A DNA stretch of 34,319 nucleotides from Bacteroidales bacterium (GTDB lineage: Bacteria; Bacteroidota; Bacteroidia; Bacteroidales; UBA932), in the NCBI GenBank assembly GCA_017561665.1, contig JAFZBQ010000069.1:1-34319 (forward strand), written 5' to 3'. The notes below the pieces were generated by a model. It did not search any database. It worked only from the letters and a program-made list of their open reading frames with translations, and was not told the DNA's origin. Shown here in pieces: positions 20,588 to 32,493 of this stretch (within the stretch, counting starts at the first letter, position 1; each line of letters begins with the position of its first letter). Position numbers and translations under genes: made by a program.

Positions 20588-20613
20588 AATACTATAGAAT
20601 AACTTTGATTTAT

Positions 20614-20930
20614 GTAGAAGGAATGAGGGGTGCGGGGGATATTGTGCTTTTTAGCTGCGCGTAAGCTTCTGAGCTCCGGTTAGAGGCGGGAGCGAAGCGA
20701 CCGACTCTAATTGAGCTCGTCAACGACGTTACAGGTGCCGGTCTGGCGCCAATCGGCTGCAGCCGATAGCGAAAGCCGAGCAGGGATGGCCTGTGGGACA
20801 GCAAGGCTGTAGCGGCGGGTCTGGGCAGCGCCCAGCAACATATAGGCGTCGCAGCGAAAAGGAGATTGGAAGCGGTTAAACGCGCAGCGTTAAGAAAAGC
20901 ACCATCCCCCGCACCCCTCATTCCTTCTGC
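20614..20930. repeat. non-coding structured element with 25-bp perfect terminal inverted repeats
   Basis: Bases 20616-20640 and 20904-20928 are exact reverse complements (25/25), and one more outer pair matches after a single mismatch. The arms continue inward imperfectly: GTGCTTTT at 20644 against AAAAGCAC, and GCTGCGCG (20654-20661) against CGCGCAGC (20881-20888). The interior holds at least five further stems: GAGCTC..TTAGAG/CTCTAA..GAGCTC (20671-20718), GGTGCC/GGCGCC (20734-20750), a 16-bp palindrome (20752-20767), ACAGC/GCTGT (20798-20810) and CTGGGC/GCCCAG (20821-20835). An outer pair ACAGG/CCTGT (20731/20790) could close a multibranch loop. No convincing protein is encoded. It may be a MITE-like mobile repeat or a structured RNA. 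No flanking target duplication is seen. Together with the two flanking promoters it fills the roughly 500-base gap between the lipoprotein and antitoxin genes. Confidence 0.8.
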
Positions 20931-20959: not shown

Positions 20960-21004
20960 AATGTAGTCAAACTGGTTGCATATTACAATCATATTGACTA
21001 CATT
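20960..21004 (+). promoter_or_regulatory. toxin-antitoxin operator: inverted repeat around the promoter
   Basis: AATGTAGTCAA (20960-20970) and TTGACTACATT (20994-21004) are perfect 11-bp inverted repeats separated by 23 bases. They bracket the -33 box and overlap the -7 box of the antitoxin promoter. A second imperfect palindrome, CCAATTGTG/ACACAATGG (21011-21028), covers the start codon. Autorepression by the ribbon-helix-helix antitoxin is the natural reading (inference). Confidence 0.6.
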
Positions 21005-21006
21005 TG
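20975..21006 (+). promoter_or_regulatory. antitoxin-toxin core promoter
   Basis: GTTG (20975-20978), 20 bases, TACATTTG (20999-21006), a perfect -7 consensus. The predicted start near 21012 rules out the in-frame ATG at 21004 and supports translation from 21025. Confidence 0.65.
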
Positions 21007-21024
21007 CATACCAATTGTGACACA

Positions 21025-21318
21025 ATGGGACAGACAGCAATGACAGTCCGAATGGACACCGACCTCAAAACGCAATTCGATGCACTCTGCGGCGAATTTG
21101 GTATGAGTACAAACACAGCATTCAATGTCTTTGCCCGAGCTGTTGTTCGGAGTCGCAAGATTCCGTTTGTGATTGAAGCCCCATTAAAAGAAGAAACAAT
21201 GGAAAAAGGGAAAAATGCTTTCGATGAGATTCGTGCTATGGCTATGAAGGGCGAAGTTCCCAACCTTACCCTGGACGAGATCAATGAGGAAATCAGACTT
21301 GCCAGGGAGGGTAAATAG
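21025..21318 (+). CDS. RelB/DinJ-family antitoxin
   Basis: A 97-residue antitoxin. The N-terminal ribbon-helix-helix is clear: TAMTVRMDTDLKTQFDALC followed by EFGMSTNTAFNVFARAVV, as in RelB/DinJ. The acidic C-terminal part (LDEINEEIRLAREGK) would wrap the toxin. The stop is followed directly by the toxin ATG (TAGATG). Base composition is visibly more AT-rich than in neighbouring genes, in keeping with horizontal acquisition. RelB/DinJ more often pairs with RelE/YafQ; here the partner is a PIN nuclease. Confidence 0.88.
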   Translation: MGQTAMTVRMDTDLKTQFDALCGEFGMSTNTAFNVFARAVVRSRKIPFVIEAPLKEETMEKGKNAFDEIRAMAMKGEVPNLTLDEINEEIRLAREGK

Positions 21319-21729
21319 ATGGTCTGTGCTGTAATCGACACCAATGTTTTAGTATCATCATTATTGTCACGACATCCTGACTCCGGAACTGTCGTGATTA
21401 GAGATTATATTCTGTCCGGTAGAGTAATACCGTTATACAATGATGAGATATTTCAAGAATACGTTGAGGTACTCCATCGCCCAAGATTAGGCCTGCCAGG
21501 CAACCTCGTGGATTCAATACTGGACACAATAAAAGCGGTTGGAATTTCTCTAGACAGGACTCCTGCAAACGAGCCTATGACCGACCCGAAAGATATCGTT
21601 TTCTACGAAATAGCCCTTTCAAAAGATGATGCATGGCTGATTACCGGCAATAAACGTCACTTTCCCAATAGCCCCATAGTCGTAACCCCAGCAGAGTTTC
21701 TGGCTATCATCAGCCACTCTGCAGATTAG
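21319..21729 (+). CDS. PIN-domain toxin (putative RNase)
   Basis: A 136-residue PIN protein of the type annotated as putative toxin component, PIN family. PIN toxins are Mg2+-dependent RNases. Acidic residues at expected places: D7 (VIDTNVLVS), E47 (EIFQEYVEVL) and D89/D92 (TDPKDIVFYEIAL). The strand LITGNKRHFP has Asn111 where many PIN proteins carry a fourth acidic residue, a variation common in this subgroup. It is directly adjacent to the antitoxin and shares its AT-rich composition. The target RNA is unknown. Confidence 0.88.
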   Translation: MVCAVIDTNVLVSSLLSRHPDSGTVVIRDYILSGRVIPLYNDEIFQEYVEVLHRPRLGLPGNLVDSILDTIKAVGISLDRTPANEPMTDPKDIVFYEIALSKDDAWLITGNKRHFPNSPIVVTPAEFLAIISHSAD

Positions 21730-28461: not shown

Positions 28462-29391
28462 CTAATTTTCCGCGGCAAACAGCCGCCCTTGAAAAGTTTC
28501 TCTGCACTCCAGTCTCTCTTCCAGCATCCTGAGCAGTTCTACATTCCGCACCAGTCCCCATGGGGTGGAATTCACAAACCGCGGCGGAACCTCCCCTGCA
28601 AAGCGCTCTATAACCAAATCGGGCCGCAACCGCTCAAGGATATCCACAAAGAAGTCAATATAACCCTCCAACGTAAACTTTTCGAACCGTTCGGGATGCT
28701 GTGCGTATTCCTCTTCCATTTTCGTGCCTTTTATTATCTGGAGCTGATGGAATTTGACGCTGTCTATCTTAAGGGCGTTGATTTTGTCGGCGGCGGAGAG
28801 CATCATTTCCCGCGTTTCGCCCGGCAGGCCAAGGATGAAATGGGCGCCGGTATATAGGCCGCGGGCGGCCGTCATTTCCACGGCCCGGACGGCTTCGGCG
28901 AATGTATGATGGCGGTTTATATGCTCCAGGGTGGCATCGTAGCACGACTCTATGCCGTACTCAACAATCACGATATGGTCTTTTGCAAGTTCGGCCAGAT
29001 AATCCAGTTTGGCCTCGTCCTCGCAGTCGGGACGGGTACCGATTACGATGCCTCGCACCTGGGGATGTGCCAGCGCCTCGCCGTATAGCCGTTTGAGCTT
29101 TTCCAGCGGCGCATAGGTGTTGGAATACGGTTGAAAATAAGCCAGGTATCCTCCGGCACGGCGGTATCGGCCGCGATGGAACTCTATTCCCTCTTCCAAC
29201 TGCTGCGAGATGCTTTTGTCGGGGGTGCTGTAGTTTGGATGGAAGGCGTTGTTGTCGCAAAATGTACAGCCGCCCCGGGCCTTGGAGCCGTCGCGGTTGG
29301 GGCAGGTGAAACCGGCGTCCACCACAAGTTTCTGCAGCCGGACGCCGTATTTCTCTTTGATGAAATCTGCCTGTGAATTATAACGCCGCAT
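28462..29391 (-). CDS. YhcC-type (TIGR01212) radical SAM protein
   Basis: A 309-residue radical SAM enzyme. The cluster-binding cysteines have the family's unusual wide spacing: C30, C42 and C45 (FTCPNRDGSKARGGCTFCDN). SAM-binding segments follow (IVIGTRPDC, VEYGIESCYDATL, FILGLPGETREMM). The reaction is not established to my knowledge. The start overlaps the stop of the upstream glycosidase-like gene by one base (TGATG), so it is likely co-translated, though no functional link is obvious. Confidence 0.9.
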   Translation of the reverse strand: MRRYNSQADFIKEKYGVRLQKLVVDAGFTCPNRDGSKARGGCTFCDNNAFHPNYSTPDKSISQQLEEGIEFHRGRYRRAGGYLAYFQPYSNTYAPLEKLKRLYGEALAHPQVRGIVIGTRPDCEDEAKLDYLAELAKDHIVIVEYGIESCYDATLEHINRHHTFAEAVRAVEMTAARGLYTGAHFILGLPGETREMMLSAADKINALKIDSVKFHQLQIIKGTKMEEEYAQHPERFEKFTLEGYIDFFVDILERLRPDLVIERFAGEVPPRFVNSTPWGLVRNVELLRMLEERLECRETFQGRLFAAEN

Positions 29392-31415
29392 CAGAGTTTG
29401 ACTTTGAATACCTTGCCTTCTTTTGTCCGGTAGGTTCTGACACGGCCGGTGGCGTTGTCGGTGACTGTGGTCTCAATCCTTTTCCCCTTGCGGAGGCATT
29501 CGATGTTGAAATCGCTGCCGAAGGCGCGGATATTGCGCAGTGCTACCCTGTCCCAATCCTTGGGGAAAGATGGCTTCATCGTGAAGGTCCTGAAGCCGAT
29601 AGGACGGATGCCGAACATCCCCTCCGTGAAGACGCGGCAGTAAAGGCCGCTCTCTGCCGAAAGGTGGCGCTGGCTGCCTTCCGGCCAGGCTTCGATGGGA
29701 TACGGCACGTGGTCTTCCAGCAGGCGGCGGTGGCTGTAGGCGCTAACCTTCGGGGTTATGTAATCGCCCTTGCCTGCATAATAGGCGCCGCGGAAGGCAT
29801 AGAGGGTGGAACGGTCCCAGTAGGTCTCCTCTCCCATCTGGGTCAGCAGCCCTTCGCCGGTGTAAAGCGGACTCTCGAACAGCGCGTCCAGAGTGGCATC
29901 GGCACGATCGAATATCCCCACCACCAGCGGCATGCAGATCCACGAGCGGAGGGTGTCGTTGCCGTCATAGTAACGGTAAGTGTCGTAGCCGCCGACTTTG
30001 GCCTCAAAGTATTTGCAAATATTGCGGCGCATCTGTTTTGCCTGGCGCATATAGCTTTTGGCCACTGTGCGCCCCTTGCCCAACTCCCTGGCCAGGTAAG
30101 ATGCGCTGATTAGGGCGTCGTAATAAAGTGTCGATGTGCAGAGGTTGGCGTCTCCATCCTCGAAACGGCCCTCCAGTTCGTCGTGGTCGGAGAGCACCAC
30201 CCCCTGGTCGTTCAGTTTCAGCCTGCAATATTCCAGGCACCACTCTATCAGCGGCCATATATCCTCTGCGACCTGCTTGTCGGCACATTCCAGGCAGTAG
30301 CGGGAAGCGCCGTAGGCGGTCATTGCAGCGTCTCCGCGGTCGCCCGCACCGTTCCAGATGTCGTCGCCTTCTGCAATGATGCTGCTGGGGATGGGTTCGT
30401 AAGCATCGTTCATAAACCGGGAATACTGCATGTAGCAGTCGTAGGCCGATTTGACACCGATATCGTAGCCCGTGAACGGGAAGAACGGGTTCACATACTC
30501 GCACTGGTCGTTGCACCATAGGGCGGCATAATAAGATTCACCGCCGGGGGCGTGCATCAAGCCTCCTTTGGTGGCTATAATGCTCTCGCTGGCGCGCAGC
30601 TTGGCAAATCCGAACTCGGTGTTTATCACCTCATCCGGGGTATCCAGCACCAGATTCTCTCCCAGCAGCTTGAATAGGTCCAACCGGGCGGCATATTCGG
30701 CCGGAAGCGAAATAGTTTCCGGGTCGATCCGTTTGGCCTCGGCTTCGTTCTTTTCGTAGGCTTGCATCACCATCGCAAAGTCACGGCCGTCGCCCGGCTC
30801 CAGGGTGAATGATCCGCCCAGCACCAGTTCAATATCCATCACGTAGCTGCCCTTTACGCCTCGTGCCGGATCGCTTTCCCACTTGTATTTATAATCGGGG
30901 ACTTCCAGCCTGACAGGTTTGTCCGACAGGTTCCTTACCGTCACCAGTTCCAGAGCCATCTGCCCGGTGCGGCTGGGAAAATCGATCCTGGTAAGTTCCA
31001 CATTTCCACCTGTTTCCGTTACCCTCAGAGTGCCGTCAATCTCCACCTTAACCGCCTTAAGGTCGGGCACTTTGCCGTCCACCTTTATCATCTGCGCCAC
31101 GTTTGTGGAGTGCCGGTACGGGAAAAACGCGTGGGTATTGTTGGGAATCATCCTCAGCAGCGGGAATACGTGGTGGTATTCGCAATAGTAACGCCCTTCA
31201 TCGTCGATGCCCCAATAATACACTATAGCGGCACGCTGCCCGCTCATCTCGATATGGTCTTTGTGAGGAGTGTTGGCCGCCGCGTCCATCACTATTATGT
31301 TGGTCTCGGGGTCCATAGTCCAGCGTGAGCCCATTTGCTCTATCGTCCATCGGGTTTCTGCCCGGGCCAGGATGCAGGCGGACAGAAGCGCCGCAACGAG
31401 TGTGATTCTTTTCAT
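29391..31415 (-). CDS. secreted six-hairpin glycosidase-like protein
   Basis: A 674-residue protein from MKRITLVAALLSACILARA, a signal peptide. An N-terminal beta-sandwich-like part (about 20-240) is followed by an (alpha/alpha)6 six-hairpin domain with acidic and aromatic motifs (WNGAGDRGDAAMTAYGASRY, VVLSDHDELEGRFEDGDANL, TYWDRSTLYAFRGAYYAGKG) and a short C-terminal beta domain. It resembles six-hairpin glycoside hydrolases, probably acting on a glycan outside the cytoplasm. The GH family cannot be fixed by eye. A start 40 codons upstream (31535) is unlikely because it would precede the promoter and bury the signal peptide. Confidence 0.78.
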   Translation of the reverse strand: MKRITLVAALLSACILARAETRWTIEQMGSRWTMDPETNIIVMDAAANTPHKDHIEMSGQRAAIVYYWGIDDEGRYYCEYHHVFPLLRMIPNNTHAFFPYRHSTNVAQMIKVDGKVPDLKAVKVEIDGTLRVTETGGNVELTRIDFPSRTGQMALELVTVRNLSDKPVRLEVPDYKYKWESDPARGVKGSYVMDIELVLGGSFTLEPGDGRDFAMVMQAYEKNEAEAKRIDPETISLPAEYAARLDLFKLLGENLVLDTPDEVINTEFGFAKLRASESIIATKGGLMHAPGGESYYAALWCNDQCEYVNPFFPFTGYDIGVKSAYDCYMQYSRFMNDAYEPIPSSIIAEGDDIWNGAGDRGDAAMTAYGASRYCLECADKQVAEDIWPLIEWCLEYCRLKLNDQGVVLSDHDELEGRFEDGDANLCTSTLYYDALISASYLARELGKGRTVAKSYMRQAKQMRRNICKYFEAKVGGYDTYRYYDGNDTLRSWICMPLVVGIFDRADATLDALFESPLYTGEGLLTQMGEETYWDRSTLYAFRGAYYAGKGDYITPKVSAYSHRRLLEDHVPYPIEAWPEGSQRHLSAESGLYCRVFTEGMFGIRPIGFRTFTMKPSFPKDWDRVALRNIRAFGSDFNIECLRKGKRIETTVTDNATGRVRTYRTKEGKVFKVKL

Positions 31416-31426
31416 CTTAGTATGGG

Positions 31427-31454
31427 TTTGTCTTACAAATTTAGCGTAAATTAG
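31427..31454 (+). promoter_or_regulatory. possible NlpC/P60 gene promoter
   Basis: TTTG (31427-31430), 16 bases, TAAATTAG (31447-31454; seven of eight consensus positions). The spacing is short of the usual 19-21, so it is tentative. Confidence 0.35.
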
Positions 31455-31466
31455 CAGAAAATAAAC
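31436..31466 (-). promoter_or_regulatory. glycosidase-like gene core promoter
   Basis: On the minus strand GTTT (31466-31463), 19 bases, TAAATTTG (31443-31436), a perfect -7 consensus. It precedes the ATG at 31415 and overlaps the divergent nlpC promoter region. Confidence 0.55.
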
Positions 31467-31470
31467 GGTT

Positions 31471-32493
31471 ATGACCATTCGAAAATTACTGTTCTGCCTT
31501 GTGCTGATGGCCGCTTTTGCCGGCTGCTCACGCAATTATGCCGTGACCACGGCCGACATGGAGCGCACCCTTCCGTTGCCCAGGGAGATTGACGACGACC
31601 AGACAAGGGAAGACTACGGCATCTGCCGGATATCGGTGATAAATGTGCGCGAAAACCCCGCCTACGAGGCGGAGATGGGCACCCAGATGCTTATGGGGGC
31701 CATTTGCTGGATAATAGAACGAAGGGACGGATGGGCAATGATCATTACGCCAGACGGATATGTGGCTTGGGTCACCGAAGGCAGCCTGCAATTTACCGAT
31801 GCGGGCGGAGCAATGGCATGGAAGGCATCCAAAAGACTGATTGTCACCGCACACTATACTCCTTTACTGGCGGCGCCGAGACGCGGCGCGGCGATTGTCC
31901 GCGATGCCGTACGCGGCTGTATAGTTGCCTGCACCGGTACTGCCGGAAGTTACTACCGCTGCCGGCTGCCCGATGGCATGTTGGCATACGTTGCCAAGCG
32001 CGACGTGGCCGAATGCCGAAACTATTTCGGGACACAGAATCCAACCGGAGCCGACATCGTCTCCGATGCAAAACTCTATATGGGCGTCCCGTATATGTGG
32101 GGCGGATCGTCCGGCAAAGCACTGGACTGCAGCGGCCTGGCGCAGCGCACCTATATGGACTGCGGCATACTGCTGCCCCGCAACGCCTCGCAGCAGGCGA
32201 CGGTGGGCGATGTGGTCGATATAAGCGGCGGCTGGGACAACCTTCAGAAAGGCGATTTACTCTTTTTCGGCCGAACCCGCGCCGACGGCAGTGTCGGGGT
32301 CTATCACGTCGCCATATATATCGGCAACTATCAATTCATTCACAGCTCCGGAGGCCTGGTCCACGTCAATTCCTTTATCCCCGACCGTGACGACTATTTC
32401 AGCGGCGTGGCCAACATAGTCTCCGCCCGCCGAATCCTGGGCAGCGAAGACGCCGCCTCTTCCCGCATCATAAACAACGGCTGGTATTTCTAA
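31471..32493 (+). CDS. NlpC/P60 cell-wall peptidase lipoprotein with SH3-like domains
   Basis: A 340-residue lipoprotein (lipobox AFAGC, Cys19). Two bacterial SH3-like regions (about 50-110 and 122-182) precede an NlpC/P60 domain (about 192-320). The catalytic set is visible: C220 (ALDCSGLAQ), H279 (GVYHVAIYIG) and H291 (FIHSSGG). Relatives are gamma-D-glutamyl-diamino-acid endopeptidases (dipeptidyl peptidase VI type) that trim peptidoglycan peptides. The glycosidase-like gene is divergent. Confidence 0.9.
   Translation: MTIRKLLFCLVLMAAFAGCSRNYAVTTADMERTLPLPREIDDDQTREDYGICRISVINVRENPAYEAEMGTQMLMGAICWIIERRDGWAMIITPDGYVAWVTEGSLQFTDAGGAMAWKASKRLIVTAHYTPLLAAPRRGAAIVRDAVRGCIVACTGTAGSYYRCRLPDGMLAYVAKRDVAECRNYFGTQNPTGADIVSDAKLYMGVPYMWGGSSGKALDCSGLAQRTYMDCGILLPRNASQQATVGDVVDISGGWDNLQKGDLLFFGRTRADGSVGVYHVAIYIGNYQFIHSSGGLVHVNSFIPDRDDYFSGVANIVSARRILGSEDAASSRIINNGWYF

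What the first reader, a model, noticed from the sequence alone, without database searches (positions are those of the whole stretch)
20614..20930. Unexplained structured element with perfect 25-bp terminal inverted repeats
The two ends are exact reverse complements (25/25) about 260 bases apart. The interior is packed with at least five more stems, including a 16-bp palindrome and a GNRA-like GCGAAAGC hairpin, and a possible multibranch closing pair. This density is far above chance and no protein explains it. It sits between a housekeeping operon and an AT-rich toxin-antitoxin module, a typical insertion spot. Options are a non-autonomous mobile repeat (MITE or REP-like), a structured non-coding RNA, or a regulatory cruciform.
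Basis: partly seen in the sequence, partly recalled or inferred. Interest (0 to 1): 0.75.

Follow-up and report, generated by a model that had tools for sequence, protein, structure and literature searches.

The report
Nested mobile folding repeats in Bacteroidales
The spot holds one small folding repeat inserted inside another; both belong to families of non-coding repeats scattered through gut Bacteroidales genomes, whose shape, including the pairing of their ends, has been kept better than their letters.

Summary
In detail: window 20616-20640 and 20904-20928 are exact reverse complements (25/25), and the strand folds far better than shuffles (z -11.3). It is two nested repeats. Element A (20613-20929; 231-268 nt in copies without the insert) has 23 high-scoring copies in 8 of 26 genus genomes, a lower bound. 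Element B (20750-20841) sits inside A and also stands alone elsewhere. Both folds show compensatory changes (A 25 of 73 pairs, B 8 of 16). No Rfam family reached its threshold there. Relatives of A occur in other rumen and hindgut Bacteroidales; there the end stem keeps pairing while its letters change (14 of 14 stem pairs). Best reading: non-autonomous mobile repeats, recognised as a folded single strand and moved in trans by an enzyme I did not find. They work like bacterial MITEs or REPINs but keep their terminal repeats by pairing, not by sequence. The rival, a dispersed RNA gene, is not excluded: copies at one locus in two species differ by eight compensatory pairs, yet no Bacteroidetes -7 box lies inside any of 23 copies.

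The parts
20613..20929 (+). Element A, full copy carrying element B
   Evidence: R1 match 1-233, 205.9 bits
20616..20640 (+). P1, left arm of the terminal stem
   Evidence: exact reverse complement of 20904-20928
20904..20928 (+). P1, right arm of the terminal stem
   Evidence: exact reverse complement of 20616-20640
20644..20652 (+). P1b left, nearly invariant; pairs with 20894-20902
   Evidence: helix 3; 98.8% of cells paired, no double change
20654..20662 (+). P2 left; pairs with 20880-20888
   Evidence: (I7) and helix 4
20665..20677 (+). P3 left (two short helices); pairs with 20861-20873
   Evidence: helices 5 and 6
20678..20712 (+). Arm P4; in six of the 18 aligned copies it carries an extra hairpin
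20713..20854 (+). Arm P5, split by element B; the copies without B read TGTAAAAG at the place of the insert
20750..20841 (+). Element B
   Evidence: R2 match 1-95, 96.9 bits
20752..20767 (+). B hairpin 1, 16-bp palindrome
   Evidence: (I12), helix 1
20968..21729 (+). RelB/PIN toxin-antitoxin module with its upstream region; neighbour, not part of A
   Evidence: Pfam; same module elsewhere in G014:C35 from 20968 on

Best explanation
Two nested, non-autonomous, mobile repeats. A is an intergenic unit that folds, on one particular strand, into a long rod (P1-P3) ending in two arms (P4, P5). B is a 90-96 nt unit with short helices that landed in arm P5. Shown: both are dispersed repeats; A is absent from some orthologous sites; the A+B composite is at five unrelated places in two species; the fold, terminal stem included, is kept by compensatory change. 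Inferred: an enzyme encoded elsewhere recognises A as a folded single strand (perhaps ssDNA at replication), reading shape plus a few fixed unpaired bases, and inserts it in gene gaps, often beside gene 3' ends and tRNA genes. Recognition by shape would explain why the terminal repeats pair within a copy yet differ between copies; recognition of a fixed terminal sequence would not.
For: 23 high-scoring copies in 8 of 26 genus genomes, only 8 candidates scored per genome. Unrelated flanks. Filled against empty: G025:C190 has the insert where G010:C65, G004:C88 and G003:C101 have 17-33 nt; window junction without A and TA in G003 and G004. Composites group together in a tree, support 0.76. Compensation in P1, P2, P3, P4 and P5; in relatives 14 of 14 P1 pairs. 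+ strand folds better in 18 of 18 A and 34 of 34 B copies; G-T:A-C 50:14 for A and 16:1 for B.
Against: No mobilising gene found: A is at 1 and B at 0 of the 20 Y1 loci examined, and RTs do not track with copies. No clean target-site duplication; in G025:C190 another ~150-170 nt came along. The strand bias of A nearly vanishes (24:21) when pairs are chosen by folding the other strand. The composites lost the otherwise constant TGTAAAAG yet occur at five places. By plain identity the window copy is closest to the non-composite G000:C4 (88.4%), not to the composites (81.0-87.1%). Compensation at one resident locus suggests a role in place, which a pure parasite need not have.
Confidence: 0.55

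Rival explanations
1. A is a dispersed non-coding RNA gene or RNA processing/stability element that acts as RNA where it sits; its multicopy state is a by-product.
For: Strong covariation, 8 double against 3 one-sided and 4 unpaired changes between copies at one locus in two species, + strand bias, constant internal loop in relatives.
Against: TAnnTTTG inside 0 of 23 copies on either strand, and within 60 nt upstream only in the window copy. Neighbouring genes run into either strand. Three relatives lie between what read as two convergent terminators, in both orientations. No expression data here.
Confidence: 0.3
2. The matching arms are kept by mutation bias: template switching during replication corrects imperfect palindromes, without selection on structure.
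For: P1 is a long terminal stem with nearly free sequence, as such correction would give.
Against: Compensation also occurs in the short inner helices P2, P3 and P5, and mismatches are biased to G-T on the + strand (weak when pairs are chosen on the other strand).
Confidence: 0.1
3. A is a REPIN of a RAYT (Y1 transposase) of the Bacteroidetes type.
For: Y1 genes in 21 of 26 genomes; a Y1 gene beside A at 2 of 18 A loci whose neighbours were scanned. PMC6006769 (section 25 and passages read) says subclass 2.6 genes of Bacteroidetes are flanked by atypical structures.
Against: A at 1 of the 20 Y1 loci examined of 40 found. The Y1 gene of that locus is flanked on both sides by a different repeat, 80% identical over 99 nt.
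Confidence: 0.15

Closest known systems
Bacterial MITEs: ERIC/RU-1, Correia/NEMIS, RUP (PMC2229807, passages read)
   Same: Small, non-coding, dispersed, intergenic; ends pair into a long stem; mobiliser unknown for most.
   Different: There TIRs of fixed size and mostly TA duplications define the families; here the terminal repeat differs between copies and is kept by pairing, and no duplication was seen. A has a branched two-arm fold.
REPINs and RAYT-linked REPs (PMC3116915 and PMC3733652, passages read; PMC6006769, section 25 and passages)
   Same: Hairpin-forming, non-autonomous, thought to move as single-strand DNA; Y1 genes are present in the genomes.
   Different: No shared GTAG foot; far longer; Y1 genes examined are mostly not beside A, never beside B.
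Bacteroidetes RNA motifs such as Bacteroidales-1 and Bacteroides-1/2 (PMC2864571, passages read)
   Same: Covarying folds in intergenic regions of Bacteroidetes.
   Different: No Rfam 15 model reached threshold on A or B; A and B are dispersed repeats and A has empty sites.

Membership tests
Bacterial MITE | Short, non-coding, multicopy and dispersed between genes | tested here: met
   23 copies, unrelated flanks
Bacterial MITE | Terminal inverted repeat conserved in sequence across copies | tested here: not met
   P1: 10 of 15 Watson-Crick-majority pairs with double changes; relatives 14 of 14
Bacterial MITE | Target-site duplication (often TA) | tested here: inconclusive
   one filled/empty comparison, with an extra ~150-170 nt insert
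Bacterial MITE | Ends shared with a transposase-bearing element | tested here: inconclusive
   only RT and Y1 genes were looked for; neighbours of 18 A loci gave no other transposase
REP/REPIN of a RAYT | GT[AG]G foot at the hairpin | tested here: not met
   read: GTAG at the start of the window copy only, not in the other 22
REP/REPIN of a RAYT | Copies flank a RAYT gene | tested here: inconclusive
   A at 1 of 20, B at 0 of 20 Y1 loci, of 40 found
Retron msr-msd | Reverse transcriptase beside or with the element | tested here: not met
   RT in 5 of 26 genomes, none in G003 and G004, which hold the most copies
Known Rfam family | Score at or above the gathering threshold | tested here: not met
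   window: tRNA only; element at E <= 5: one match, 16.9 bits against a threshold of 82; 11 loci at E <= 1: tRNAs and one sub-threshold match over a tRNA
Integron attC site | Core site, integrase and cassette array | not tested
   considered because attC is also recognised by fold (recalled)

The most novel reading that the evidence does not exclude
A is a mobile element recognised by shape: the mobilising protein reads the branched single-strand fold and its unpaired loops, so the terminal repeats may take any letters that pair. The design, with a nearly constant internal loop, has spread and diversified in several Bacteroidales lineages, and the same fold may act as RNA where copies settle.
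Probability: 0.25. Interest if true: 0.8.

Novelty: new variant of a known kind. Interest (0 to 1): 0.55.

Why it matters
Small folding repeats are common, but it is usually unclear whether selection sees their sequence or their structure. Here the two separate: the terminal stem keeps pairing while its letters drift, in many copies and several lineages. That allows a direct test of whether a mobile element can be recognised by fold, and gives models with which to look for its enzyme and its transcripts.

Tried and rejected
Retron-like origin: TAGC right after the P1 stem suggested it (recalled), but reverse transcriptases do not track with copies, and the 5' and 3' parts pair with each other throughout.

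RAYT as mobiliser of A: suggested by a Y1 gene beside the G000:C4 copy; weakened when that gene proved to be flanked by another repeat and 19 of the 20 Y1 loci examined had no A at E <= 0.001 (two further matches of 47 nt at E 0.04-0.08).

Plasmid or phage cargo: one A copy (L046) has no match at E <= 1e-5 in 72,556 plasmid or 50,697 phage records. The core pattern is in 8 IMG/VR stretches; with R1 two of these 8 gave only 10.7 bits.

Shine-Dalgarno-like reading of AAAAGGAGG: considered, not pursued; G424 and G104 read AAAAGGGAGG and AAAAGGGCGG.

Breadth search with R3: matches in 2 of 393 genomes of the order; 5 candidates per genome were scored, so this is no count of carriers.

Papers: six searches; no listed title or abstract start names such an element. 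Most subscription papers are not held.

Full report
WHAT IS THERE. Window 20616-20640 and 20904-20928 are perfect reverse complements, 263 nt apart. The + strand folds with z -11.3, 0 of 100 shuffles as good. The region lies between an operon that includes a V-type ATPase subunit and a SIMPL protein, and a RelB/PIN toxin-antitoxin pair.

TWO NESTED REPEATS. The window's own genome has a second copy on contig C4 that lacks the middle, and places on C75, C94 and C53 that match only the middle. In the genus, 17 of 26 genomes have some match to the whole query. Alignments show an outer element A and an inner element B. B (20750-20841) sits in arm P5 of A. At that place A copies without B read GGCGCCTGTAAAAGGAGG; in the five composites the TGTAAAAG is gone.

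COPIES. With a covariance model of A (R1, from 18 copies without B), 10 of 249 genomes of the family have a match at E <= 0.001. Matches over 180 bits: 23, in 8 genomes (G004 8, G003 6, G023 3, G000 2, and one each in G006, G007, G020, G025). Eighteen of these 23 built the model. Only 8 candidates per genome were scored, so the numbers are lower bounds. G001 holds a divergent subfamily (8 matches, best 40.9 bits) and G104, of another genus, one weak match. B (model R2) matches at E <= 1e-5 in 19 of 149 genomes of three genera, 16 times in G000, with 28 candidates scored per genome.

FOLD. On the 18-copy alignment of A, 25 of 73 pairs have changes on both sides and 95.6% of cells pair; shuffles give 10.6 pairs and 91.0%, and partners slid by 1-3 columns give 5-8 pairs and 36-52%. 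By helix, among pairs whose commonest form is Watson-Crick: P1 10 of 15, P1b 0 of 8, P2 4 of 9, P3 4 of 10, P4 1 of 9, P5 6 of 18. B: 8 of 16 pairs, shuffles 4.2; one of its five measures (further pair types) is reached by 39 of 500 shuffles. Shuffles do not remove shared ancestry, and the structures came from the same alignments, so these are not probabilities.

ONE STRAND. In the same pairs G-T outnumbers A-C 50 to 14 on the + strand of A. The pairs were chosen by folding that strand; with pairs chosen on the other strand the ratio is 24 to 21, no clear bias. For B the two ratios are 16 to 1 and 5 to 1. The + strand folds better in 18 of 18 A and 34 of 34 B copies (all).

SAME LOCUS, TWO SPECIES. 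L048 (G023:C108) and L060 (G003:C129) have matching flanks, and both lie beside an EPSP synthase gene and a tRNA-Leu gene. Between them 8 pairs changed on both sides, 3 on one side with pairing kept, and 4 involve a non-pair. A second such pair of loci (L050/L052) gives 1, 4 and 3; a third (L046/L047) 0, 1 and 0. L060 has the extra P4 hairpin and L048 has not, so independent insertions at one site are not excluded.

MOBILITY. G025:C190 has A after a stop codon where G010:C65, G004:C88 and G003:C101 have only 17-33 nt; another 150-170 nt, with a palindrome of another family, came along on one side, and I saw no clean target duplication. At the window's junction G003 and G004 lack both A and the TA module. 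The TA module occurs in G014:C35, G010:C50 and G013:C32 with no A in the upstream stretch printed; those genomes have no R1 match. G024:C156 has, at the site of L039, what reads like the two ends of A joined. In a FastTree tree of 23 copies the five composites group together, support 0.76; by plain identity the window copy is nearest to the non-composite G000:C4, 88.4% against 81.0-87.1%. The likeliest course is that B entered A once and the composite then spread.

RELATIVES. The core pattern GACGTTMCNG-N(6-36)-CNGKAAAAGGMGG found 112 stretches in GTDB genomes, some surely by chance. I gave R1 56 of these 112 and all 8 viral stretches. 29 of the 64 sources match at E <= 0.001, all 29 titled Bacteroidales, Bacteroidia or Candidatus Equibacterium; the core matches by construction. 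Many of the others carry a long terminal stem of unrelated letters around the core. In an alignment of 17 relatives chosen by eye (six of the 23 listed left out: two Horse_feces44, four Equibacterium), all 14 P1 pairs show double changes, with 0-6 of 17 cells unpaired or gapped per pair. L176, L178 and L236 read like one intergenic region between two convergent genes, with A in L176 pointing the other way from L178 and L236 (by eye).

WHERE THEY SIT. In one search (simple ORF calling, 23 loci, ends padded by 15 nt), 8 of 23 have within 60 nt of the right end the stop codon of a gene read towards it, and 5 of 23 at the left end (one a broken copy, two one orthologous site). A tRNA gene lies within about 135 nt of A in 6 of 22 loci. 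B ends 1-2 nt before tRNA-Ser(GCT), same strand, in 5 of 33 loci, with tRNA-Pro(TGG) nearby in all five; 7 more of the 33 have B within about 110 nt of another tRNA. Toxin-antitoxin genes are beside A in the window and at 3 of 18 loci with scanned neighbours (L040, L042, L055; 30 of the 34 ORFs were scanned).

WHO MOVES IT. Not found. Y1 transposases are in 21 of 26 genomes, 40 matches. Of 20 such loci examined, A is at 1 and B at none. Two of 18 A loci have a Y1 gene beside A. The one examined further is flanked on both sides by another repeat. Published work says that Bacteroidetes RAYTs of subclass 2.6 are flanked by atypical structures (PMC6006769, section 25), so a RAYT not sampled here remains possible.

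RNA? Nothing here measures transcription. TAnnTTTG, the Bacteroidetes -7 box (recalled), is inside 0 of 23 copies on either strand and within 60 nt upstream only in the window copy. Neighbouring genes run into either strand.

VERDICT. A pair of nested, mobile, structure-conserved intergenic repeats. The kind is known (MITE- or REPIN-like). No Rfam 15 model reached threshold, and six literature searches listed nothing that names it. Terminal repeats kept by pairing and not by sequence set it apart.

Noticed in passing
L067 705-796, L079 1007-1102, L081 1096-1191, L094 1005-1100, L098 879-971: Element B ends 1-2 nt before the mature 5' end of tRNA-Ser(GCT) in five genomes, so it may be part of the pre-tRNA leader.
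   Followed up: partly
L116 1193-1291 and 2351-2500: A roughly 99-nt palindromic repeat (ACGGTACC...GGTACCGT type) flanks a Y1 transposase gene on both sides; relatives elsewhere in the genus. A candidate cognate REP of that RAYT.
   Followed up: partly
L046 right flank and L057 left flank: A further repeat of about 90 nt built on CTCCCAATGGG stands beside A; one search shows many places in the genus.
   Followed up: no
L055 and L058 right flanks, L195, L219 and L246 right flanks: Palindromes of the type GGTCCA...TGGACC stand close to A in different genera (by eye).
   Followed up: no
L100 1252-2584, L101 1243-2746: Two reverse transcriptase ORFs carry degenerate repeats of the stretch around their YVDD motif; L101 also has two tandem partial B matches and a tRNA-Met downstream.
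   Followed up: no
L176, L178, L236: A relative of A lies between what read as two convergent terminators, in opposite orientation in L176 compared with the other two: inversion or independent insertion.
   Followed up: partly
window 29391-31535 (-): A 714-aa ORF without a Pfam match at E <= 0.001.
   Followed up: no
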